The notes beneath the pieces were generated by a model, which ran no database searches, was not told the DNA's origin, and saw only the letters and a list, made by a program, of their open reading frames with translations. Positions 1,929-12,654 of a stretch of DNA of 21,845 bases are shown here, in pieces; the first letter of the stretch is position 1; each line of letters opens with the position of its first letter. This DNA is from a virus. The stretch is from the IMG/VR virus record IMGVR_UViG_3300033149_001416, positions 1 through 21,845 of that record. One strand, written 5' to 3'. The translations under genes were made by a program, and so were the position numbers.

Positions 1929-3359
1929 TTATGATTTCTGATGCAGTTTTACATTAAAATATGCCGGCACATTGTCTCCGGCCGCTGATACCCCGGTTAT
2001 TGCACCTGTACCACTTGCTGCTGTATCTCCGCTAATTGAATGGCCGTGGGCTGAGCCTCCACCGGTTTCATCATCAAAAGCAGGAAAACTATCGCTACTT
2101 TTCTTGACAAAACCGGTTTGATATGTTCCTAAATTAACCAAGCTATGTGTATGTGCGGATTCATTTGCAGCAGCAAGTGTCCCCGCACTATGAGTATGAC
2201 TTGGCCCCGCGTAACTTCCGGCGGCGTGAGTATGTGTGTCTGATCCTCCGGTATCTAATGCGGCACCCGTGCTTACTCTCATGAATTTGCCAGTATAAGT
2301 AGCCGTAATGTCCGCCCACCCCGGCTGGGGGGAAGAATTCGTCGTCTGTTTCAAATCATTAGAAACCCAGTCATTCGACATCAGCAAGCCGGAAGTGATC
2401 TTAAACTCGTCAGTGTTAATCAAATTCGCCAGGTTGGCAAACCCTATCTGCAGCAGAGGCCGCACGTCCGCGTAAATATATCCCTGGTTGCTGTCGCTAT
2501 CCTTGTCCTCATAATCGAGCACGCTGGTCATTGTCGATTTGCAGTACACCAGGCATATAGGCAGTTTTTCCGGGGTTAAACTCGACCACGGCGCGCTCGG
2601 CGGTGACGCTTCTGCCCCGGTAACCCACGCTAATGTCCCCGCGCTGTTGATCGTCAGGATATCAATTCTCGGGTTAGCACTGGGCGCGGTCAGTTCCGGC
2701 GCTGCCTGAATACCTGCAGCCAGCGGCTGATCAATAACATAGACATTCTGATAATACGACCCCGGCGTTGAAGTTTCTACCGCTACAGTCATGCCGCATA
2801 CCGCTTTGATAGTATCGATTATATACGTGGCCGAAGCGTCCAGGCCGGAAAACCCGAACTCGACAATATCCGACAACGTAGCGTCTGTGCCGTTATTGCT
2901 GTCGGGAGATGACAAAGTCAGCGTGTCCTGCTGCCAGGTATCTGCCGACCCATTAGTAGTAATATCCCAATAACTGATATTTCCCGAGCTGTCCTTCAGA
3001 TAAAACTTAATCGCGCTGGATGCCGCATCGCATCGTTCCCAGACCTTCACCGAAGTAAACGCCGAAAGGTCTATTGTCAAAGACCGGGCAACTGCCCTGT
3101 CTCCGGTAGCATCGATTGCCAATTCTAACGCGTAATTTCCTTCCTGCTTAGCCGTAGAATACCCTACGGTAACTCCGGTCCCTGACCACTCCGCCTGGGC
3201 TCCGGCATCGGACGGATATTCCATATCGTCCAGGATAAGGCTTGCCCGCGGCCTCAGCGGCATAATGTCGGACTGAAACAGCGCCCTTAATGTATTGCGT
3301 AAATTCAGCAAAGACATGCTCCCCTGCGGTTGATTACGATCGAAGGTACTTTTTTCCAT
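1929..3359 (-). CDS. Tail fibre / receptor-binding protein with HxH motifs
   Basis: A 476-aa protein. Residues about 40-190 form a Ser/Thr/Asp-rich region resembling a carbohydrate-binding jelly roll (it opens LILDDMEYPSDAG and ends near TYIIDTI). The last 110 residues carry four His-x-His motifs (376/378, 388/390, 403/405, 438/440) in Gly/Ser/Ala-rich repeats and finish PAYFNVKLHQKS. HxH pairs on the trimer axis bind iron in T4 gp12 and other fibres, so a metal-bound trimeric needle is likely. It lies directly downstream of the tail-tip and zinc-ribbon genes. The start at 3359 has AGGAGAGGTGAT upstream. The fibre call is strong; receptor binding is inferred from position and domains. Confidence 0.8.
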   Translation of the reverse strand: MEKSTFDRNQPQGSMSLLNLRNTLRALFQSDIMPLRPRASLILDDMEYPSDAGAQAEWSGTGVTVGYSTAKQEGNYALELAIDATGDRAVARSLTIDLSAFTSVKVWERCDAASSAIKFYLKDSSGNISYWDITTNGSADTWQQDTLTLSSPDSNNGTDATLSDIVEFGFSGLDASATYIIDTIKAVCGMTVAVETSTPGSYYQNVYVIDQPLAAGIQAAPELTAPSANPRIDILTINSAGTLAWVTGAEASPPSAPWSSLTPEKLPICLVYCKSTMTSVLDYEDKDSDSNQGYIYADVRPLLQIGFANLANLINTDEFKITSGLLMSNDWVSNDLKQTTNSSPQPGWADITATYTGKFMRVSTGAALDTGGSDTHTHAAGSYAGPSHTHSAGTLAAANESAHTHSLVNLGTYQTGFVKKSSDSFPAFDDETGGGSAHGHSISGDTAASGTGAITGVSAAGDNVPAYFNVKLHQKS

Positions 3360-3365
3360 GATTTA

Positions 3366-3626
3366 TCACCTCTCCTTTTTATAAATTTGTGTCCCGCATT
3401 TTTCGCAGTGCCCAACTATAGCACGGCGCGAATCGATGAGGTTGACCTGATACGCTTCTACCATTTGCCTCGCGACATGGCACGCCATACAATAACCTTT
3501 CATTCCGGGAACCTTGCCGATGATTTTAAACCGCTGCGCTTTTAGTTTTTTCCGGACAGTTACATCGCGCAAAACCGGCGATTTGATTTTTAAAATTTCG
3601 ATTTTTTTCTTAGCTTCCTTTAGCAT
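3366..3626 (-). CDS. Zinc-ribbon small protein (DUF5679-like)
   Basis: An 86-aa basic protein with two CxxC pairs, Cys46/Cys49 (GYCMAC) and Cys74/Cys77 (GHCEKCG), separated by a hydrophobic-strand region and ending GTQIYKKER. This matches the layout of the short DUF5679 zinc ribbon. The N-terminal 40 residues are Lys-rich and may bind nucleic acid. The gene overlaps the end of the tail-tip gene by 17 nt and has its own GGAGGTGG site, so it is translationally coupled to it. Its role is unknown; a small metal-binding chaperone or host-takeover factor are both possible. Confidence 0.65.
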   Translation of the reverse strand: MLKEAKKKIEILKIKSPVLRDVTVRKKLKAQRFKIIGKVPGMKGYCMACHVARQMVEAYQVNLIDSRRAIVGHCEKCGTQIYKKER

Positions 3627-6600
3627 CCGCGTCCACCTCCGCTGTCCCGATCGGCGTTGTCATCGCCTGATCGGAATACACCCTAAACGTACATTTATCT
3701 ATTGCCTTTGTAACTTTAACGAACCCGGCCGCGCCGTTTGTGATATTCACTACCACGCGGGGTATATAAGTAAAATCCGTTCCGTAATACCAGTCCGCGC
3801 CTCCTGTGGGCACCGCCAGGTCAGAGGTCCACGCGACCTTAGTAACCGGCGCGTTAACGTATATCGTCGCCCCGTAAACATACACATTAAAATTCGTGTC
3901 GGAAGTTGATAACAGCAGTTTAAATTTTATGTATTGCGCTGTATACAGTGTTGTCGGGTCCGCATTCGCGAAGCTCGAATACGTTACTCCATCCTCGCTG
4001 CAGCTGATCTGCAGGATTACGCTTCCTCCGGATACATTGCGGTAATCGATATCGGTAACGACATTAAACGATACGATAGTACCAATATCGATAGGGGTAA
4101 TCATTTCAAAGCTTCCGGAAGCTTCCACCGGCCGGTCCATGACCAGCCCGCCATTAGCCTCCTGGTATTCCCATGTCTGCGATTCCGCTTCCCTTTCTTC
4201 CCAGGTCGCCTGCGTTTTAAGGGTTATCGCCGGCCTGGCGTACCCGCTGTCATAATCGTTTGTCATTACCAGCCCTGTATTGCTGTGCTTGTATTCGATG
4301 TTCTGCGCCCAGAGATTATATAAATTAATAAAGTTCATCTCCGGCGGCTTGTCCACGTCGATTGTGTCCGTTGCCGGCGCCTCGCTCTGGTTGCCGGACT
4401 GATCCACGGCGTAGCAGTAGAACGTCTGCTCTCCTATCTGCCCTATCGGGTACATGACCTCTGTAAGGTCGGCGCGCTCAGCGATAATCTCCCCGTTCGG
4501 CCTGACGATTTTAAAATGAGAAAAATCCGCTTCCGGATGCGCGTCCGCGGTAAAACGCAGCATATTCCCCGCCTGGTACACATCGAAACCCGTCGGCGTT
4601 GCCGGCTTTTGTTCTTTCCCGAGGACAGTAACCTGGCTGGAGACTGTCCCGTCAGATATAATTTTATTTATGCTGACGGTTTTCACCCGCACATAATAGC
4701 TGGTTTCCTCAACAGCATAAACGCGGAAATTATTCGCCGCCGGCGTGCCTGCTACCACATAATCGCCCGCGCCCTTTTTCAGCTCCACCTGGTAATGGCT
4801 CAGAAGCCGCTTAGAATCGTCTGTCGGCTCTGTCCAGGAAATAATCAAGTCAGATGCCGCTGTGCCGTCCTTATGCAGGTAGTAAGTGCTTTCGGAAACG
4901 TTCAGCCCGGTAACGTCCGTGACCGGAGCATAAGGATTTGCCGGCGTGCCGTAATTAAACAGCTGTATAGGCGCTCCGTACCTATCGTTATAAATTGACG
5001 GATTATAAGTCTGGAAATATAAAGTATAAATACCGGCCTCAAGTTCCGCTATTTCTAAAACGCGCGCCCTCTGTTCAGTCCAATTCATAAGGCTATGCGT
5101 GACCTTAATAATATCCCCAGGCTCCAGGGATACCGCCTCCATGCTTACTACCAGTTTCCCTGTGAGGTTATTTATTAGCTCCTCGTAAAAATACTGGTAT
5201 CCCAGCCTGAGCGCCTGAGACTGCCGGTTAATGCAGGGGATGGTCAGTGTTTTCTCGTATATTCCGCGCCTTTGCTGGTCCGCCCTATTCTGCGCGCAGG
5301 GCACCTTGACCATCACGTCGTTTTGGTCCGGATCGAAATATTCAATACTGAATTTATTTATTTTTTCGTCAACATCCTTGCCGAATATGACCATCTCCTT
5401 GATATGGTCTTCTTCGGTCAGGCTTAATACAGAACTTTCCTGTTTTGAAACTCTCAGCTTGAACACGCTGCCGGAGCGGAAAATCATGCCGCCGAATCCA
5501 ACAAGCATCTCCGCGATGTTGTCGTTTGCCGGCCTGCGCTGGTCTATAGAATATCCTATCTCATACCTCGCTTCTGTACCGCCTTCGCCGTCGCTGACAC
5601 TTTCCGCGCAGTCCTCATACGCTTCTCCCCAGCTGTCGCTGTCAATATTCGCCGCGGGTATCCCCACTCCTCCGCGCTGGCGTTCGGTGATCAGGTAATC
5701 CCGCAGGCACGCCGCGTAATTAGCGGAATATGTCTTTGCTGACGTCCACGCGCTGCCGTTCCAGGTCTGCACTTTGAGCCCTTGTACCAGGCAAGTTATT
5801 GTCGCCCTGCCGCCTTTGAGCTTGTCCGATGACGCCAGATGCACGTGCAAACACGCCCGGTTGCGGTATTCCACGCCTCCCAGGTCTAACCCTGTGTCTG
5901 TCTCCACGTTTTGCGTGGATGTGCCTAAAAAAGCCGTATAAGAACACCCTGGCAGGCTGGCAATATCGATATTATTGACCTTGACCTCGGATACGCTGTT
6001 GATTTCTCCCTCTCCGAGCATTATCAGGATATCCACCTCTTCCCCGCCGTCCGCCGGGTACTGAAAAACAAAATTCCCGGCGACCCTTACCTGGCCGTAT
6101 ATCCTGGGAAACGGGTATTGATTGCTGACCGTATTCTCCAGCTTGCCGAACTTATACCGGGGCGATGAAGCGTTAGCATTGCGCCTCGGCGGATCAAGAG
6201 CCAGCCCCACGGAATAACCAATAGCTACGCCCTGGATGGTCGCCCATGCCACGCTCAGGAACGTAGCGCCTTCGGCCGCCAGCCCTATACCTCCGGCGAT
6301 CAGCCCTCCGAGAACCGCTCCGGCCGGAGGTCCAGCCGGCGGTAAATACATCCTGCCGCCTTTCGGCCTTAACGCGAACTGGAACATTTCCGCCCAGTGC
6401 GGGGTCATCCTGCTTATTCTGCTTCTGTCCCCTTCCTGGGCGTGCAGCATTTTTTTAAACCCGATGTATACGCCTACATGGAGCTCGTCTTTGATTTTAA
6501 AAACCAAAATATCTCCGGCTTCTAATTTATCCGCGGGGATGATATGCGCGTTTTCTTTTATTTTTTCTTTGAGAATTTCCGGGGGAATATGTTTGGCCTC

Positions 6601-6729
6601 ATCCCGGGATGGGGCTTGTGCATCGATGCCTCTTCCCTGGAGAAACATCTCGCAGAGTTTTACGCAATCCGCTGATTCCCAGGGTATGCCCACCAAACTG
6701 TCTATAAGTTCTATGATATGCTTCTGCAT
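3610..6729 (-). CDS. NlpC/P60 peptidase fused to J-like tail-tip protein
   Basis: A 1039-aa protein. Residues 1-125 resemble an NlpC/P60 cell-wall peptidase, with Cys22 in SADCVKL, His84 in LHVGVYIG and His96 as a possible third residue. Residues about 128-180 are a Gly/Ala-rich hydrophobic segment as in lambda gpI. The remainder resembles lambda gpJ/megatron tail tip: conserved VSNQYPFPRIYGQVRVAG, then two fibronectin-III-like domains (about 600-780) and beta-rich C-terminal modules. Lambda and the gene transfer agent encode peptidase and J separately. It likely forms the tail tip and opens peptidoglycan during entry. The ATG at 6729 overlaps the previous stop as TAATG and has GGAGG upstream, which favours it over an earlier in-frame codon at 6777. 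Confidence 0.85.
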   Translation of the reverse strand: MQKHIIELIDSLVGIPWESADCVKLCEMFLQGRGIDAQAPSRDEAKHIPPEILKEKIKENAHIIPADKLEAGDILVFKIKDELHVGVYIGFKKMLHAQEGDRSRISRMTPHWAEMFQFALRPKGGRMYLPPAGPPAGAVLGGLIAGGIGLAAEGATFLSVAWATIQGVAIGYSVGLALDPPRRNANASSPRYKFGKLENTVSNQYPFPRIYGQVRVAGNFVFQYPADGGEEVDILIMLGEGEINSVSEVKVNNIDIASLPGCSYTAFLGTSTQNVETDTGLDLGGVEYRNRACLHVHLASSDKLKGGRATITCLVQGLKVQTWNGSAWTSAKTYSANYAACLRDYLITERQRGGVGIPAANIDSDSWGEAYEDCAESVSDGEGGTEARYEIGYSIDQRRPANDNIAEMLVGFGGMIFRSGSVFKLRVSKQESSVLSLTEEDHIKEMVIFGKDVDEKINKFSIEYFDPDQNDVMVKVPCAQNRADQQRRGIYEKTLTIPCINRQSQALRLGYQYFYEELINNLTGKLVVSMEAVSLEPGDIIKVTHSLMNWTEQRARVLEIAELEAGIYTLYFQTYNPSIYNDRYGAPIQLFNYGTPANPYAPVTDVTGLNVSESTYYLHKDGTAASDLIISWTEPTDDSKRLLSHYQVELKKGAGDYVVAGTPAANNFRVYAVEETSYYVRVKTVSINKIISDGTVSSQVTVLGKEQKPATPTGFDVYQAGNMLRFTADAHPEADFSHFKIVRPNGEIIAERADLTEVMYPIGQIGEQTFYCYAVDQSGNQSEAPATDTIDVDKPPEMNFINLYNLWAQNIEYKHSNTGLVMTNDYDSGYARPAITLKTQATWEEREAESQTWEYQEANGGLVMDRPVEASGSFEMITPIDIGTIVSFNVVTDIDYRNVSGGSVILQISCSEDGVTYSSFANADPTTLYTAQYIKFKLLLSTSDTNFNVYVYGATIYVNAPVTKVAWTSDLAVPTGGADWYYGTDFTYIPRVVVNITNGAAGFVKVTKAIDKCTFRVYSDQAMTTPIGTAEVDADAKGS

Positions 6730-7610
6730 TATTCCTCCACCGGTACCGGGTTCATTGTCTGCGGGATGTCTTTGCATCCGCCGAAATTAGCCTGGTTGCC
6801 GAAAACGTTTTTGCATGTATCGAACGCCTGGTCGCACCCGCGCCGGATCTCGTACGTATCTCCTTCAGCCGGCGCGTAAGGCAAAGCGTAATCCAGGGTC
6901 AATGTGTCCGTGTCCGCGTCAAAATCGATTATCGTCCTCTCTATCCCCTCATTCTGGCCGCTGGTAAACTTGATAAATCCGCGGTTCCAGTAATCGTCAG
7001 CTTCTGTCCTGGCCGCGTCCACCACTGTTGTCGTTGTACACCCGGAGTCAGCTGTTTGGCCGGTTATCGGAGTGTTATTGACCCCGCACCAATCGTCCCC
7101 AAGGATATACGGGCAGTCAATGTTCTGCAGCGCGCCGGTAATAACCGATAAGGAACTTATTTTCGAGCGGATGCGCACCTTTACTTTTTCTATTCTCAGC
7201 TCCTCCACCTGGCTGATAATACCGTCAAAAAGTATTTTACAGTGCGTTGACGAGGTTAAAAGGTCCAGGAACACCCGGCGGATTACCACACGTTTGCCGC
7301 GCAAGTCCCCCGTAATTGGCGAGGCGATCCAGTTACTCCATGCCAGATCGGCGTTATCGAACTCTCCGCCCACAGAATCAACGGATAATTGAGAATTGGC
7401 GTTTATCGGTTCCCGGGTGAGGTTAAGAGGGGTATAATCCTGCGCGTCGCCGTCTAAATTCCAAAAGCTGACCTTTGTGTTATCCGTACAGAAATGGTAA
7501 GTATTAGAATCTTTAACATCCTGGCTCCCCAGGTATATATCATAAAGTTCGCACGGCCGGTTATTCGCTTTTGCCGCTTCCGCTTTAAATTCAGTAGTAA
7601 GACTCTGCAT
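6729..7610 (-). CDS. Tail hub protein, DUF2163/BR0599 family (gpL-like)
   Basis: A 293-aa protein of the baseplate-hub family that includes lambda gpL and gene transfer agent g13. The C-terminal signature GCDQAFDTCKNVFGNQANFG is typical of the phage BR0599 domain. Cysteines 166, 175, 259 and 266 (spacing 9, then 7) correspond to the set that binds a [4Fe-4S] cluster in lambda gpL and the gene transfer agent hub, so this protein probably carries one too; Cys191 and Cys279 are extra. A domain of about 70 residues (185-255) separates the two Cys pairs. It would sit between distal tail protein and tail tip, matching gene order. The start has AAGGATG upstream. Confidence 0.82.
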   Translation of the reverse strand: MQSLTTEFKAEAAKANNRPCELYDIYLGSQDVKDSNTYHFCTDNTKVSFWNLDGDAQDYTPLNLTREPINANSQLSVDSVGGEFDNADLAWSNWIASPITGDLRGKRVVIRRVFLDLLTSSTHCKILFDGIISQVEELRIEKVKVRIRSKISSLSVITGALQNIDCPYILGDDWCGVNNTPITGQTADSGCTTTTVVDAARTEADDYWNRGFIKFTSGQNEGIERTIIDFDADTDTLTLDYALPYAPAEGDTYEIRRGCDQAFDTCKNVFGNQANFGGCKDIPQTMNPVPVEE

Positions 7611-7626
7611 AAAACATCCTTAATTT

Positions 7627-8217
7627 TTAAGTAGAAGGAACCGTATACGTATCCCATAGCACTTCCTGCAGTTTAAGCCCCATGTGCAGCAGCTTATACA
7701 TTATCAGTTCCCTCGACAGCCGGTCTTCCATAAACCGTACCTGGAAATAAAACTCATAATCCGCGGTAATCACAACGCCCGCTCCCGGAGCCGGCGTAAA
7801 GGTAATTTTTGACGATTCTGTCGTAAGGTTATTCGATCCGGTAAACCCGGAAGATTGCGCTGCGCCGTCGAAATAAGGGACGACAGAGTTTACGTCTATA
7901 GGGAAATAATCCAGTGCGAACTCTGTCTCGTTATCATCGCCCGTGCCGAGAGACTCGCCTTCGCTTTTTTTATGCGTGGGGAACTTAATCCAAAACGGAT
8001 CGTATCGGCCCTTGCGCGCCCTGTAAAAATCCCATATAGTCTTCACGGCTGTATCGCTCTGGTATTTAAGAAACAGTGTCAAGTCCCGCATTCCGCGCGA
8101 GCGGTGCGAGTAGGCTTTTTCCTTACCCTTGCCAGACCGGAATATAGTCGTATCGTAGCTGATGCCCTCTTCGATAGTTTTAAAAGCCGGCGATAACGTT
8201 AATATCTCTGTGCTCAT
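7627..8217 (-). CDS. Distal tail protein, DUF2460 family
   Basis: A 196-aa protein. The opening TEILTLSPAFKTIEEGISYDTTIFRSGKGKE, written here only as its YDTTIFRSGKG core, and the C-terminal ITADYEFYFQVRFMEDRL match DUF2460/TIGR02217, the gene transfer agent g12 distal tail family. A central GTGDDNETEFALDYFP region and a FTPAPGAGVVITADY strand are standard for the family. It forms the ring closing the tail tube and docking the hub. The start overlaps the tape-measure stop as ATGA, so translation is coupled. The next gene downstream is the hub, as expected. Confidence 0.82.
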   Translation of the reverse strand: MSTEILTLSPAFKTIEEGISYDTTIFRSGKGKEKAYSHRSRGMRDLTLFLKYQSDTAVKTIWDFYRARKGRYDPFWIKFPTHKKSEGESLGTGDDNETEFALDYFPIDVNSVVPYFDGAAQSSGFTGSNNLTTESSKITFTPAPGAGVVITADYEFYFQVRFMEDRLSRELIMYKLLHMGLKLQEVLWDTYTVPST

Positions 8218-9857
8218 GCGAAAACCCTCTGCATATCTCTATAACCGCGGTTATATTTCTGCGCCTTGATATTGATTTCCTGGATTACCCCGCTGCCTTC
8301 GCTGCGGAGCTTATCCTGAAAACTTTTCGCATCAAGAGCGGTTATATAATAATTGTTTATTATGGTTTGCCCGCCACCACCGCTTTGCCCCTGGTTTAGC
8401 GGCACAACCTGCGCCCCGGCCGGCAGGTAAACTCTTTCTCTGCCCCTTTCCCCCACATCAACAATCCCGCCGCGGACAATGATTCCGCCGGCAGCCGCGC
8501 CTGGAACCTTCGATTCTGCCCCCATCCCGAACGCCGGAGCCAGCCCCGGAAACATCCCCACCAGCGGCTTGACTACCGCGAAATACGCCATTATCTGCCC
8601 CATAATATTCGCCAGTACGTTCAGCATTACGTCCCCGAACGCCCGGAAGTAATCCTCGGCTGTTTTCAGCTCGCGATGGAACGCGTCCAGGAAGAACGTC
8701 TTAAACGATCCGGCCATGTCATCCCAAAGCAGCTTCGCAACCTGGCTCTGGACATTAGCAAACTCCGAGAACTCATCCATTATTGCCTTAAACCGCCCGG
8801 GTTTTTTGCCGTCCGGCGGTGTTATCGTAATATTTTGCAATTCAACGCTCATTTTTTCTAACCGCTTTAAATCTTCGTCGGTAATTAATTCTTTAAGTTT
8901 AACTAAATCAAATGCAATCCCCGCTCGTTGCAGACTAATTGCTAAGTCAGTTAATTTTTCGGAAAAAAGAACAAGATTATGCTCATAATAGTCTTTACGC
9001 AAAAAATCATTTTTTTTAAGTTTCGTCATTTTTTCTTTGGTCATTTCCAATGCGCCTATTAATCTATAGAATTCATCCACTTGTTTAACTGTTCTTAACT
9101 GCCTCATTGCGATAACGCCCTCCGTAAGATATCCCGCAAATTCTTTTAAAACCGGGATCATCTCCTTAGTAAATGCAATCGCCAATCCCCTCAAAGACCT
9201 TTTCAGCTGCAGCATTTTATCATCGAACTCTTTCATCTCTTCTGCGGAGATTTTATCTAAAACAATTCCTGCCTGTTTTGCCTCTTCCCCCAGTTGTTTA
9301 AGCCCTGACTCGCCGAGCAAGAGCATGTTATAAAGCTCTTTCCCGCCTCTGCCCAATATTTCCTGGGCTCTTTGCAATGCTTCTGTTTTATCTTTGGCAG
9401 TGCTTACATATTCCGCTATATCCATAAAAACATCGTATGTTCTCCGCAGTTTTCCAGAGCTGTCAGCCACGCTTACTCCCATGGCGTCAAAAGCCCGTTT
9501 ATACGTCATAAGCCCGTCCTTTGCCTGGCCCATATATTTCGCTAATACCGGTAATGCTTTTGAAAGCGCTTCCATGCTCGCATGTTCCTGCTCCGCGGCA
9601 TAAGCAAGCTTTGAGAATTCTTCCGTCGACATATTAGTCATTTTCGACATCTTATCGAGCTGGACTCCATACGAAATTACATCCTGGGTTATTTTAGACA
9701 GTGCGTAACCCACCGCCAGGATCGATGCGGCAATTGCCTTCCAATTTTTCCTGACATCGTCGGCAAATTGCCGGATATGGTTTTTTACCCCGGTTAATCG
9801 TTTGCTGGCCTCATCGCGCATCTTCATTCTGATTTCCAATTCATGTTTAGACGGCAT
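8214..9857 (-). CDS. Tail tape-measure protein
   Basis: A 547-aa mostly helical protein. The N-terminal part resembles tape-measure proteins (KISYG-type helices, LDKMSKMTNMSTEEFSKLAY, ILGRGGKELYNML). The C-terminal part carries the lambda/gpH-like module: LKTAEDYFRAFGDVMLNVLA, a hydrophobic stretch, then GGIIVRGGIVDVGERGRERV and a Gly-rich linker. It sets tail length and is ejected into the host. Because length scales at roughly 0.15 nm per residue, the tail should be about 80-90 nm (inference). It has an AAGGAGAATG ribosome site. Unusually, it is separated from the chaperone gene by a two-gene cassette on the other strand. Confidence 0.85.
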   Translation of the reverse strand: MPSKHELEIRMKMRDEASKRLTGVKNHIRQFADDVRKNWKAIAASILAVGYALSKITQDVISYGVQLDKMSKMTNMSTEEFSKLAYAAEQEHASMEALSKALPVLAKYMGQAKDGLMTYKRAFDAMGVSVADSSGKLRRTYDVFMDIAEYVSTAKDKTEALQRAQEILGRGGKELYNMLLLGESGLKQLGEEAKQAGIVLDKISAEEMKEFDDKMLQLKRSLRGLAIAFTKEMIPVLKEFAGYLTEGVIAMRQLRTVKQVDEFYRLIGALEMTKEKMTKLKKNDFLRKDYYEHNLVLFSEKLTDLAISLQRAGIAFDLVKLKELITDEDLKRLEKMSVELQNITITPPDGKKPGRFKAIMDEFSEFANVQSQVAKLLWDDMAGSFKTFFLDAFHRELKTAEDYFRAFGDVMLNVLANIMGQIMAYFAVVKPLVGMFPGLAPAFGMGAESKVPGAAAGGIIVRGGIVDVGERGRERVYLPAGAQVVPLNQGQSGGGGQTIINNYYITALDAKSFQDKLRSEGSGVIQEINIKAQKYNRGYRDMQRVFA

Positions 9858-9858
9858 A

Positions 9859-9887
9859 TTGACATTCTCCTTTTCTTAGTGTATCTT
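9859..9887 (+). promoter_or_regulatory. Promoter of the inverted cassette
   Basis: A perfect -35 TTGACA (9859-9864), a 17-nt spacer and TATCTT (9882-9887, four of six consensus bases) point rightward into the 48-aa gene. On the other strand the same bases hold the ribosome site of the tape-measure gene. The predicted start near 9894 leaves a leader of only about 11 nt, mostly the Shine-Dalgarno, so the exact -10 is uncertain. Confidence 0.45.
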
Positions 9888-9904
9888 TTAGTGAGGAGGT
9901 TATT

Positions 9905-10051
9905 ATGTCGAAACAACCAGTAACTGCTGGCGGAATCGTTGGGGTTTTCCTATTCTTATTAGGGGTTATTTTTGCAATAGCGGGTTTCATGTTTCCGGCA
10001 CTTTGGGTTATTTCCGCGATCTTTATCATATTGGGAGTTACCCTTAAATAA
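9905..10051 (+). CDS. 48-aa two-helix membrane peptide (cassette gene 1)
   Basis: A 48-aa protein not assigned to a family. After a short polar start (MSKQPVTAGG) it has two hydrophobic segments (residues 11-30 and 33-46) separated by a Pro, so a helical hairpin in the membrane is likely. GAGGAGGT lies 5 nt before the ATG, one of the strongest ribosome sites in the window. It is the first gene of a rightward two-gene unit; the WYL-like gene starts 15 nt after its stop. The opposite orientation and AT-rich composition set it apart from the virion genes. Possible roles are membrane partner of the next protein, toxin-like peptide or superinfection exclusion; none is shown by sequence. Confidence 0.65.
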   Translation: MSKQPVTAGGIVGVFLFLLGVIFAIAGFMFPALWVISAIFIILGVTLK

Positions 10052-10066
10052 TTAGGCGTTTTTTTT

Positions 10067-10735
10067 ATGCACATTGTAGTAATATTTAGTTTTATCATTG
10101 TCTTACTTCTATTTTTTTCTAAAAAACAAGCGAACATTCAACCTCCTCATAATTTTCCCCCTTCTATATCACTTACTCAAGACGTCATAGATAAATCTAT
10201 CGTTAATCAAACGCAATTAAAAATCACTTACAATGACTTGCATCGCATTATTAATCCGTATTATGTAACCGAGACTCATATCTATGCCTGGTGCAGCTTA
10301 AGACAAGAACCCCGCACATTTAACATTAACAATATTACTTCTTGTGAGATATTAAACTCATTTTTTAACAAGGATGCGCTGGTTGCTAAATATCTCTGGG
10401 AACAAAAAGAATTCTTCAGTAAAAAGTCATATTCCCAATGGCTCAAAGAGCAAAAACATCAAGTGACAGCACCGCAACAATCATTTACTTTTTCTAATGC
10501 GGAAAATATTTTAAAAGGAAAAAAAGTCTTATGGATCAAATACATTTCTTCTAAAAAAGAAATTACGGAAAGAAAAGTTAACATATACGCTTTGGACCGT
10601 GATTTTTTCCATGCTTGGTGCCATAATTCAAAAAGAATAAAAAATTTCAGATACGGCCGGGTATTAGAATGGAAACCGCTGGATGATTCATATAAGATAA
10701 GAAAACGGCCATCTCCGGATACAACCCCGTTATAA
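10067..10735 (+). CDS. Membrane-anchored protein with two WYL-like modules (cassette gene 2)
   Basis: A 222-aa protein starting with a transmembrane or signal-anchor helix (residues 2-18). Two related modules follow, at about 48-100 (LKITYNDLHRIINPYYVTET, HIYAWC, EPRTFNINNI) and 148-210 (VLWIKYISSKKEITER, FFHAWC, IKNFRYGRV). Each has the WYL-type order: strand with aromatic Y, basic/Asn residues, a Y/H-A-W-C strand, then a basic turn. WYL domains sense ligands or nucleic acid and often regulate anti-phage systems, but usually with an HTH; none is seen here. It is strongly AT-rich and on the strand opposite the late genes, converging on the chaperone gene 13 nt away. The ribosome site is weak, so coupling to cassette gene 1 is likely. 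The WYL call is by eye. Confidence 0.62.
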   Translation: MHIVVIFSFIIVLLLFFSKKQANIQPPHNFPPSISLTQDVIDKSIVNQTQLKITYNDLHRIINPYYVTETHIYAWCSLRQEPRTFNINNITSCEILNSFFNKDALVAKYLWEQKEFFSKKSYSQWLKEQKHQVTAPQQSFTFSNAENILKGKKVLWIKYISSKKEITERKVNIYALDRDFFHAWCHNSKRIKNFRYGRVLEWKPLDDSYKIRKRPSPDTTPL

Positions 10736-10748
10736 TGCATATTCTTTT

Positions 10749-11479
10749 TCATTTTTTCATCCTTTTTTCCTGCACGCGTATAACCTCGCTTTGGATTATC
10801 CGCATTGCTTTGATAAACTTTACTGACTGGCCCATCCATCCTCCCTCGTTCGGCAGATATCCTGAATTAAAAAAACTGTACGCTTCTAAATAATCCGCGC
10901 TCTGCTGTGTGATCAGCCTTAAGGGGCAGCGGTTAAACTTCATATCTATTTCCGGTATTGTGATCGCGCCCGGGATTATCCCCTCGTTATCACAGCCCAG
11001 CTCGAGCTTATCCTGCTCCGAGCACTTGCGGCAGTCCAGGCCGATATGGGGCGCCCAGACCGCCAGGATCAGTTTTTTCGCTCTTCCTCCGAAAATTCCA
11101 GGTTCCTGGTAATTTCGTTAGATAATTCAAACATAAGCTCCGGAGTAAACATTTTCAGTATTTCATCGGTAACCACCTGGTAATTTTTGCCCCCAAAGCT
11201 CATACTCACAGTATCAAATTTCACCGGCTGATTTGTTCTCGGGTCAAGAAAATTTTCCATGCCTTTAAGCCCCATTTTCACGGTCAGGATTATCCGGCGT
11301 CCGGATTTAATCTGATATTCATTTGCCATCCGGTCGTATGTTGCCGTCACATCTTTAATCTGGGCATCCATTATCGTATCGATTGCCCCGAGCTTGAATA
11401 CCGTCGGACTATCTTTATCCGGATCGTTAGGGGATATATAATCCTTTGTTTCATAAATATTAATCCCTTTAAATGCCAC
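10749..11479 (-). CDS. Tail assembly chaperone GT fusion made by -1 frameshift
   Basis: Join of 11479-11072 and, after a one-base slip, 11072-10749, giving 243 aa. The slip site A AAA AAC (11078-11072) lies directly before the TGA that ends the short form, and the -1 frame is open for 107 codons from there. A 7-bp stem starts 7 nt downstream. This is the lambda gpG/gpGT arrangement, in which the minor long form bridges the tape measure and tail tube during assembly. The extension has Cys at fusion residues 150, 153, 163 and 185 (DCRKC, LGC, RCP), so it may bind zinc. The start is GTG with AAGGGGTGAT upstream. The slip signal is seen directly; frameshifting efficiency is unknown. Confidence 0.82.
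11030..11064 (-). promoter_or_regulatory. Frameshift-stimulating stem-loop
   Basis: On the minus strand GGCGGTC (11064-11058) pairs with GACTGCC (11036-11030) through seven consecutive pairs, one of them a G-T wobble, around a 21-nt loop. It begins 7 nt after the A AAA AAC heptamer, the usual spacing for a structure that stimulates -1 slippage. Confidence 0.6.
11069..11479 (-). CDS. Tail assembly chaperone, short form (gpG-like)
   Basis: A 136-aa protein, the normal product without frameshifting. It has no strong sequence signature visible by eye, but length, position between tail tube and tape measure, and the slippery sequence at its last codons identify it as the gpG-type chaperone. The body is mixed alpha/beta and the end is acidic (LEFSEEERKN). 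Most ribosomes should stop at the TGA at 11069-11071. The GTG start was chosen because it has AAGGGGTGAT upstream and no ATG is better placed. Confidence 0.78.
   Translation of the reverse strand: MAFKGINIYETKDYISPNDPDKDSPTVFKLGAIDTIMDAQIKDVTATYDRMANEYQIKSGRRIILTVKMGLKGMENFLDPRTNQPVKFDTVSMSFGGKNYQVVTDEILKMFTPELMFELSNEITRNLEFSEEERKN
11072..11078 (-). promoter_or_regulatory. -1 ribosomal slippery heptamer A AAA AAC
   Basis: On the minus strand the codons CGA AAA AAC TGA contain A_AAA_AAC in the proper zero-frame phase, immediately before the stop. This is one of the most efficient bacterial -1 slippery sequences. Confidence 0.8.
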
Positions 11480-11508: not shown

Positions 11509-12654
11509 TTAGTAGCATAACATCACATAATCGTCGTCGGTCAGGCTTCCTCGGCCGCAGACCGCCATTTTCACGTTCGCGACCTTGACGCCTTCCCTGT
11601 CCCCGTCCTCTACGTCGTTAATCTGCACCTGGGGCGCGTAAAAACGGAACTGGTTGCCGGCATCTGAGCCCCATTGCAGGTTTAGAGGCATTTTTGTCGC
11701 CGCGCGCCAATATCCGTGGAAATCGAACGCCGCCACCAGGAGCATATCGAAGTCAGCGGTAATTACCGGGACCCTGTCCACCCACATAAACATTTTTATA
11801 CCGTAAGTTTCTGAAGGATCGTCAACCGGCGCGATTTCGTTCTGAGCGTCAAACTCCAATGTCCGGAATCTTAGCGCGGTACTGTTGAGCGTAACGGTCG
11901 CAGCCATGAACGCCGGCGGTACAGTGCTCTCCCTGGTAATGCCGGTAATATAGGCGGCATCATCGATACTCTGCTCCACGCCCATAAAATTATGGCTCAG
12001 CCGCACCGGCTTGCCGTTTTCCCATCGAATCTTCTGGTTGCCTACGCAGCCTTTAAGGAGCTTGCGTACTCCGTCTTCGTACCCGGCCAATGTTATCGTC
12101 GGTATTGACGTGGATATCGGGGTAACCGCCTTTCCGGTTTCGGAAGGCGTACTGCCGGTAGTCGCTGTCGCGCCGCTGGTGCCTCCGGTAATAGTTTCCG
12201 CGTTTTCAAAAGTTCCTGTTAACTGAATAAAATACAGCGTGGTTGTCCCGTCGGCCGTATCAATAAGCACTTTTCCAGTTGCCCCGGAATTCGCGCCGGT
12301 AATAGTTTCCCCGTGCTGGAACGGCCCGCTGGTTACCTCTCCGATAGTGATAGCGTAAAAAGCGTTCACCTCATGCCCGCACGCGCGCATATACTTAACA
12401 AAATCCGCCTCAGTTGTTGCCGTGCCCGAGCCTTTAACATCCAGCTCAAAGGGCAGGGTCAGAGGCCGTTTTCCCGGGATTGTGCCCAATTTTGCCCCGG
12501 TATTGCGTTCCGGGTTGCGGTCGTAGTTTTCCACCCCGGCCATGCTGATGATTGCGCCGAACGCAAACGATTTCGCGTCCGTTGCGGACAATGATTCCGC
12601 CGTGCCTGGGCTGCTTTCAATTTTTCCCGCTATTTGCCTGCGTCTGTAATTCAT
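11509..12654 (-). CDS. Major tail tube protein
   Basis: A 381-aa protein in the tail-tube position. The N-terminal KIESSPGTAESLSATDA-type opening (core SSPGTAESL) and the later VKVANVKMAVCGRG strand are usual in phage tail tube proteins of this size. An insertion at about 105-168 contains two copies of a GxF..xETITGxxSGATx unit 37 residues apart, a motif seen in decoration-type inserts of structural proteins. It polymerises into the tail tube around the tape measure. The ATG at 12654 has GGGAGGAT upstream. The chaperone gene follows. Confidence 0.75.
   Translation of the reverse strand: MNYRRRQIAGKIESSPGTAESLSATDAKSFAFGAIISMAGVENYDRNPERNTGAKLGTIPGKRPLTLPFELDVKGSGTATTEADFVKYMRACGHEVNAFYAITIGEVTSGPFQHGETITGANSGATGKVLIDTADGTTTLYFIQLTGTFENAETITGGTSGATATTGSTPSETGKAVTPISTSIPTITLAGYEDGVRKLLKGCVGNQKIRWENGKPVRLSHNFMGVEQSIDDAAYITGITRESTVPPAFMAATVTLNSTALRFRTLEFDAQNEIAPVDDPSETYGIKMFMWVDRVPVITADFDMLLVAAFDFHGYWRAATKMPLNLQWGSDAGNQFRFYAPQVQINDVEDGDREGVKVANVKMAVCGRGSLTDDDYVMLCY
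12185..12310. repeat. Direct repeats encoding tail-tube ETITG units
   Basis: The 15-mer CCGGTAATAGTTTCC occurs at 12185-12199 and again at 12296-12310, 111 bp (37 codons) apart and in the same frame. It encodes the ETITG core of the two repeat units in the tail tube protein, evidence for an internal duplication. Confidence 0.7.

What the first reader, a model, noticed from the sequence alone, without database searches (positions are those of the whole stretch)
10749..11479. Programmed -1 frameshift makes a tail chaperone GT fusion with a cysteine-rich extension
Seen directly: CGA AAA AAC TGA contains A AAA AAC in the correct phase one codon before the stop. The -1 frame is open for 107 further codons to 10749, and a 7-bp stem starts 7 nt downstream. 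Known: lambda G/GT and many tail chaperones use such a slip. Gene callers will annotate only the short form plus a spurious 64-aa fragment. The extension has Cys at 14, 17, 27 and 49 (DCRKC, LGC, RCP), an unusual metal-binding-like T domain.
Basis: partly seen in the sequence, partly recalled or inferred. Interest (0 to 1): 0.72.

Follow-up and report, generated by a model that had tools for sequence, protein, structure and literature searches.

The report
Frameshifted tail chaperone with cysteine domain
A phage tail-building gene makes a second, longer protein when some ribosomes slip back one base; the added part is a cysteine-rich, probably zinc-binding domain shared by many environmental phages but absent from the protein-family libraries searched.

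Summary
On the minus strand A AAA AAC (11078-11072) lies in the correct phase directly before TGA, and the -1 frame is open for 107 codons to 10749. The reported 7-bp stem is really a 12-bp hairpin starting 7 nt after the heptamer.

No family library matched, but tblastn and heptamer-free pattern searches recovered a large family (116 unique T-domain ORFs). In the heptamer-free set 34 of 39 carry an in-phase slippery heptamer (chance 12%). The hairpin is stronger than protein-preserving recodings and covaries; the -1 frame is under purifying selection; the order tube-G-T-tape measure matches lambda V-G-T-H. This is a G/GT-type programmed frameshift.

New is the T domain: a conserved four-cysteine core, confidently folded by AlphaFold2, with no match in Pfam, PHROGs, NCBIfam, PDB or BFVD and no detectable similarity to lambda T. 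The sites are mostly A AAA AAC, a weak site in E. coli. The signal also occurs in Rhodobacter phage RcZahn, whose authors saw no clear frameshift evidence.

Metal binding, the G:GT ratio and tail-tube binding remain inferred. New variant of a known kind.

The parts
11069..11479 (-). G-like short tail assembly chaperone, 136 aa, GTG start, stop TGA right after the heptamer
   Evidence: ORF; homologues in the same place in relatives
11072..11078 (-). slippery heptamer A AAA AAC, in phase for -1 slipping
   Evidence: sequence and phase; conserved in relatives
11069..11071 (-). 0-frame stop TGA
   Evidence: directly after the heptamer in 85 of 106 junctions
11030..11064 (-). 12-bp stimulatory hairpin: arms 11064-11053 and 11041-11030, loop 11052-11042, starting 7 nt after the heptamer
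   Evidence: folding, covariation, stronger than synonymous recodings
11086..11090 (-). GGAGG, possible Shine-Dalgarno-like stimulator (not shown)
   Evidence: duplex -9.5 kcal/mol here, but no family signal beyond the encoded peptide
10749..11078 (-). -1 frame extension: Cys-rich T domain (107 aa after KK) and its stop
   Evidence: open frame; family alignment; purifying selection; AlphaFold2 pLDDT 92.1
10749..10943 (-). 64-aa ATG ORF that a gene caller would report: a fragment of the T domain
   Evidence: same kind of fragment annotated in JP1, L338C, RcTiptonus
11509..12654 (-). major tail tube protein (381 aa), upstream neighbour
   Evidence: tblastn to proteins annotated as tail tube in JP1 and RcTiptonus
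8214..9857 (-). tape measure protein (547 aa), downstream neighbour
   Evidence: PHROG tape measure families, best named one E 4e-25

Best explanation
This is a lambda G/GT-type tail assembly chaperone gene. Most ribosomes stop at TGA and make the 136-aa G-like protein. A minority slip back one base at A AAA AAC, helped by a 12-bp hairpin 7 nt downstream, and make a fusion of about 243 aa that ends in a 107-aa T domain. The signal, its conservation and the selection on the extension are shown; the products and their ratio are not. By analogy with lambda, G coats the tape measure protein and GT recruits the tail tube subunit (inferred). The T domain belongs to a distinct family with a four-cysteine core, most likely a structural zinc site (inferred).
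For: In-phase heptamer before the stop with an open -1 frame. Heptamer conserved in 34 of 39 members found without using it, chance 12%, and in named phages found by tblastn. 0-frame stop directly after the heptamer in 85 of 106 junctions. Hairpin: mean z -2.34 over 71 representatives against about -0.3 in controls; stronger than synonymous recoding, window 0 of 60 as stable; 88% of cells paired, covariation 0.417 against 0.239 shuffled. -1 frame under purifying selection, median pN/pS 0.22. No usual start codon before three of the four Cys. T runs into the tape measure gene in nearly all relatives and the order is lambda's.
Against: No product, ratio or binding was measured. G and T show no significant similarity to named chaperone families or to lambda G and T, so the role rests on gene order and the junction. 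A_AAA_AAC is a weak site in E. coli (PMC4066793). A few family members lack a recognised heptamer at the usual place.
Confidence: 0.92

Rival explanations
1. The T domain is a separate gene with its own start, translated by coupling or reinitiation after the G stop; the heptamer is incidental.
For: Some relatives have an ATG, GTG or TTG upstream of the first Cys, and annotators used such starts (RcZahn gene 28).
Against: The window and many relatives have no such start before the Cys core; it does not explain the in-phase heptamer or the hairpin; conservation (KKL-x2-A) runs up to the heptamer.
Confidence: 0.03
2. Transcriptional slippage at the run of six A, rather than ribosomal slipping, makes the fusion mRNA.
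For: A6 run at the junction.
Against: Six A is short for polymerase slippage (general knowledge); homologues use GGGAAAC and AAATTTG at the same place; a conserved hairpin 6-7 nt downstream in the usual position for a ribosomal stimulator (5-8 nt in PMC4066793).
Confidence: 0.03
3. Sequencing error or pseudogene: G and T are one broken gene.
For: A homopolymer at the junction.
Against: The same frame relation is found at 106 independent junctions from many assemblies and in isolate genomes.
Confidence: 0.01
4. The frameshift is real but the four cysteines do not bind metal; they are structural or redox-active.
For: No metal data; AlphaFold2 gives no ligand; no known zinc family matches above noise.
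Against: C-x2-C plus two more Cys in 106, 102, 104 and 106 of 106 members; one replacement of C29 is His (L076); some members add more C-x2-C pairs; stable disulphides are unlikely in the cytoplasm where tails assemble (general knowledge).
Confidence: 0.2

Closest known systems
Bacteriophage lambda gpG / gpGT tail assembly chaperones
   Same: Gene order tube-G-T-tape measure; short protein plus a -1 frameshift fusion near the end of G (PMC5009743).
   Different: Slippery site A AAA AAC; conserved hairpin downstream; T domain has a four-Cys core whereas lambda T has no Cys and does not align with it.
Rhodobacter phages RcTiptonus and RcZahn tail assembly chaperones
   Same: Homologous G and Cys-T domains with in-phase AAAAAAG and AAAAAAC.
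   Different: Annotated as two separate ORFs; for RcZahn the authors report no clear evidence of the frameshift (PMC8601537).
Haloarchaeal viruses HCTV-1 and HCTV-2 g-t frameshift
   Same: AAC-type slippery sites G GGA AAC and A AAA AAC (PMC5009743).
   Different: Archaeal hosts; relationship of their T domains was not tested here.
IS1-type A AAA AAC frameshift
   Same: Same low-efficiency heptamer used for programmed -1 frameshifting in bacteria (PMC4066793).
   Different: Transposase gene; the A_AAA_AAC IS cluster has no established stimulator there.

Membership tests
G/GT-type frameshifted tail assembly chaperone | small ORF between the tail tube and tape measure genes, with a second overlapping ORF in the -1 frame | tested here: met
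G/GT-type frameshifted tail assembly chaperone | in-phase slippery heptamer near the end of the first ORF, conserved in relatives | tested here: met
G/GT-type frameshifted tail assembly chaperone | fusion product made in a defined minority ratio and needed for tail assembly | not testable with these tools
   needs expression or phage genetics
G/GT-type frameshifted tail assembly chaperone | sequence or fold similarity of G to known tail chaperones | tested here: inconclusive
   no significant match; only marginal single-member hits to Phage_TAC_5, XkdN-like and PHROG tail chaperone models, and YqbN 3klu at E 3.6
lambda T domain family | sequence similarity of the extension to lambda T | tested here: not met
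   hhalign finds nothing; lambda T has no Cys
-1 programmed ribosomal frameshift signal | stimulatory RNA structure 5-8 nt downstream of the heptamer | tested here: met
   hairpin at 7 nt
-1 programmed ribosomal frameshift signal | Shine-Dalgarno-like stimulator upstream (optional) | tested here: inconclusive
   GGAGG present here; family signal not above the synonymous null
Zinc-binding Cys4 domain | four conserved Cys ligands | tested here: met
   106, 102, 104, 106 of 106, with partial bias from the search patterns
Zinc-binding Cys4 domain | bound metal with tetrahedral geometry | not testable with these tools
   model coordinates were not readable and AlphaFold2 places no metal

The most novel reading that the evidence does not exclude
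A widespread T-domain family, separate in sequence and predicted fold from those in the libraries searched, uses a zinc-stabilised four-Cys domain to recruit the tail tube, and is expressed through a conserved AAC-type slippery site (mostly A AAA AAC) plus a covarying hairpin, a combination expected from E. coli work to start from a weak site, so that the hairpin or host tRNA modification sets the GT ratio.
Probability: 0.5. Interest if true: 0.62.

Novelty: new variant of a known kind. Interest (0 to 1): 0.5.

Why it matters
It defines an uncatalogued family of frameshifted tail chaperones in about a hundred metagenomic phage contigs and in sequenced Alteromonas, Rhizobium, Agrobacterium, Rhodobacter and Microcystis phages, where records show unnamed or wrongly started fragments. 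It gives annotators a usable signature, a natural data set of covarying frameshift hairpins outside E. coli, and a T domain whose fold and possible metal site can be solved to learn how GT recruits the tail tube.

Tried and rejected
Single-protein searches of IMG/VR and GTDB found nothing or one chance subtilisin-like hit. P24, JY22, JP1 and L338C as IMG/VR queries gave only near-identical contigs or nothing. Alignment A1 was too divergent for degenerate patterns. The GTDB pattern scan was mostly chance matches; only L196, L204 and L248 proved real. A Shine-Dalgarno-like stimulator was tested: there is a peak 11-15 nt upstream, but not stronger than synonymous recoding of the conserved acidic peptide gives, so it is not claimed. 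Separate initiation, transcriptional slippage and sequencing error were considered and set aside (see rivals). Structure searches of T (PDB, BFVD) and G (PDB) gave no significant match.

Full report
OBSERVATION. The minus strand of the window reads ...TCG GAG GAA GAG CGA AAA AAC TGA TCC TGG... The heptamer A AAA AAC is at 11078-11072, in the X XXY YYZ phase of the ORF 11479-11069, with TGA at 11071-11069. The -1 frame continues for 107 codons to 10749 and has Cys at residues 16, 19, 29 and 51 counted from the first K of KKLILAV. The window is a whole IMG/VR record of 21,845 bases, a linear fragment.

NEIGHBOURHOOD. Upstream on the same strand is a 381-aa protein related to proteins annotated as tail tube in JP1 and RcTiptonus. 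Downstream is a 547-aa tape measure protein, then DUF2460 and BR0599-type tail genes and a J-like protein. This is the lambda V-G-T-H order.

IS IT MORE THAN CHANCE? Neither product matches a Pfam, PHROG or NCBIfam model. tblastn found distant relatives in named phages: Alteromonas P24, Agrobacterium JP1, Rhizobium L338C, P11VFA, RHph_I4 and RHph_TM16, Microcystis Mae-JY22 and, starting from JP1, Rhodobacter RcTiptonus and RcZahn. All of these have an in-phase slippery heptamer at the junction (AAAAAAC, AAAAAAG or GGGAAAC). To avoid circularity I built a DNA pattern from the downstream T motif alone (G-C, C-P, G-x-L-P-x2-G-G-x3-Q) and scanned IMG/VR. In 34 of 39 unique confirmed members an in-phase heptamer lies within 100 nt upstream of the first Cys; the chance rate in the same contigs is 12%. 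For AAAAAAC alone it is 25 of 39 against 0.7%. Across 106 junctions the 0-frame stop follows the heptamer directly in 85 and within one codon in 94; this larger set includes loci found with a heptamer-first pattern and is biased towards AAAAAAC. Between related pairs, differences in the extension concentrate in third positions of the -1 frame (2623, 1851, 6070), with median pN/pS 0.22.

STIMULATOR. Over 71 representatives the stretch 6-60 nt downstream is far more structured than its dinucleotide shuffles (mean z -2.34, controls -0.33 and -0.26). Against synonymous recodings that keep the -1 frame protein, mean z is -1.85 with controls near 0; for the window none of 60 recodings is as stable. 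On 53 gap-free sequences the window's 12-bp stem is formed in 88% of cells (shuffled 78%), with covariation score 0.417 (shuffled 0.239; best slid register 0.175) and 74 doubly changed cells (shuffled 30). An independent consensus fold finds the same helix. For example, alignment column 21, the wobble base of a Val codon, covaries with column 43, the first base of an Asp or Asn codon (U-A or C-G). Relatedness inflates the shuffle control, but the slid registers and the recoding test do not share that weakness. GGAGG at 11090-11086 could act as a Shine-Dalgarno-like stimulator, but across the family that signal is explained by the conserved acidic peptide.

T DOMAIN. The family reads K-K-L-x2-A ... 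C-x2-C-x(5-9)-C-x(17-35)-C-P ... G-x-L-P-x2-G-G-x3-Q in the members listed. The four Cys occur in 106, 102, 104 and 106 of 106. Part of this was required by the search patterns, but each set also conserves the Cys columns that its own pattern did not require, and the tblastn relatives have all four. One replacement of C29 is His (L076), and several members add further C-x2-C pairs (L099, L112, L120, L165, L166), as a zinc site would allow. AlphaFold2 predicts a compact domain (pLDDT 92.1, pTM 0.79) with no significant match in PDB or BFVD. Profile comparison with lambda T finds nothing, and lambda T has no Cys. Scans of all family members against Pfam, PHROGs and NCBIfam give only scattered single-member noise. 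G has marginal single-member matches to XkdN-type and other chaperone models, which are leads only.

MECHANISM. Shown: heptamer, phase, hairpin, conservation, selection, gene order. Inferred: that slipping yields a minority GT product; that G binds the tape measure and T the tail tube, as in lambda (PMC5009743); that a balanced ratio matters, as a permanently fused GT in TP901-1 gave non-infectious particles (PMC4493119). [quoted passage not shown] coli (PMC4066793, PMC5009743), yet 29 of the 34 heptamers in the unbiased set are of this AAC type. A weak site plus a stimulator is a plausible way to set a low GT ratio; different tRNA modification in the hosts is another possibility and was not tested.

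WHAT IS KNOWN. Frameshifted tail chaperones are textbook. For RcZahn, a member of this family, the authors wrote that there is no clear evidence of the frameshift sequences (PMC8601537); its junction here has A AAA AAC in phase and the T domain in the -1 frame. Deposited records lack the fusion: P24 has no T gene, JP1, L338C and RcTiptonus show short fragments, RHph_I4 and Mae-JY22 show separate ORFs. None of the text searches found a paper on a cysteine or zinc T domain; subscription papers were not searchable.

VERDICT. A conserved programmed -1 frameshift signal. The kind is known; the T-domain family, with its site and hairpin, is new to the libraries searched.

Noticed in passing
window 10067-10735 (+): A 222-aa WYL-domain gene (Pfam E 3e-12) with a hydrophobic N terminus, on the opposite strand and only 33% G+C, sits in an 891-bp gap between the T domain and the tape measure gene. 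In nearly all relatives T runs straight into the tape measure gene and none of the fetched loci has this protein: it looks like a recently inserted moron.
   Followed up: partly
window 9847-10137 (-) and 10459-10839 (-): 96-aa and 126-aa ORFs in the same insert overlap the WYL gene on the other strand, have no family match and no homologue in relatives; probably spurious.
   Followed up: partly
L042, L043, L099, L112, L120, L165, L166: T domains with an insert of extra C-x2-C pairs between the third and fourth core Cys, resembling a DnaJ-like zinc knuckle.
   Followed up: no
L018 (RcZahn) 2519-3420: Published as lacking a clear tail chaperone frameshift signal, but A AAA AAC is in phase at 3001-3007 and the T domain follows in the -1 frame.
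   Followed up: yes
L196, L248, L204: Members close to the window's clade lie on small contigs of Omnitrophota MAGs (L196, L248) and a Dehalococcoidales MAG (L204), a weak hint at the host.
   Followed up: no
window 3610-6777 (-): A 1055-aa protein that seems to join a minor-tail domain near the N terminus (probably NlpC/P60-like), a short lambda-I-like stretch and a J-type central fibre in one polypeptide.
   Followed up: no
L031, L046, L048, L057, L071: Family members with the heptamer further upstream or of another type (GGGAAAG, GGGAAAC, GGGAAAA, TTTTTTG), possibly a different junction design.
   Followed up: no
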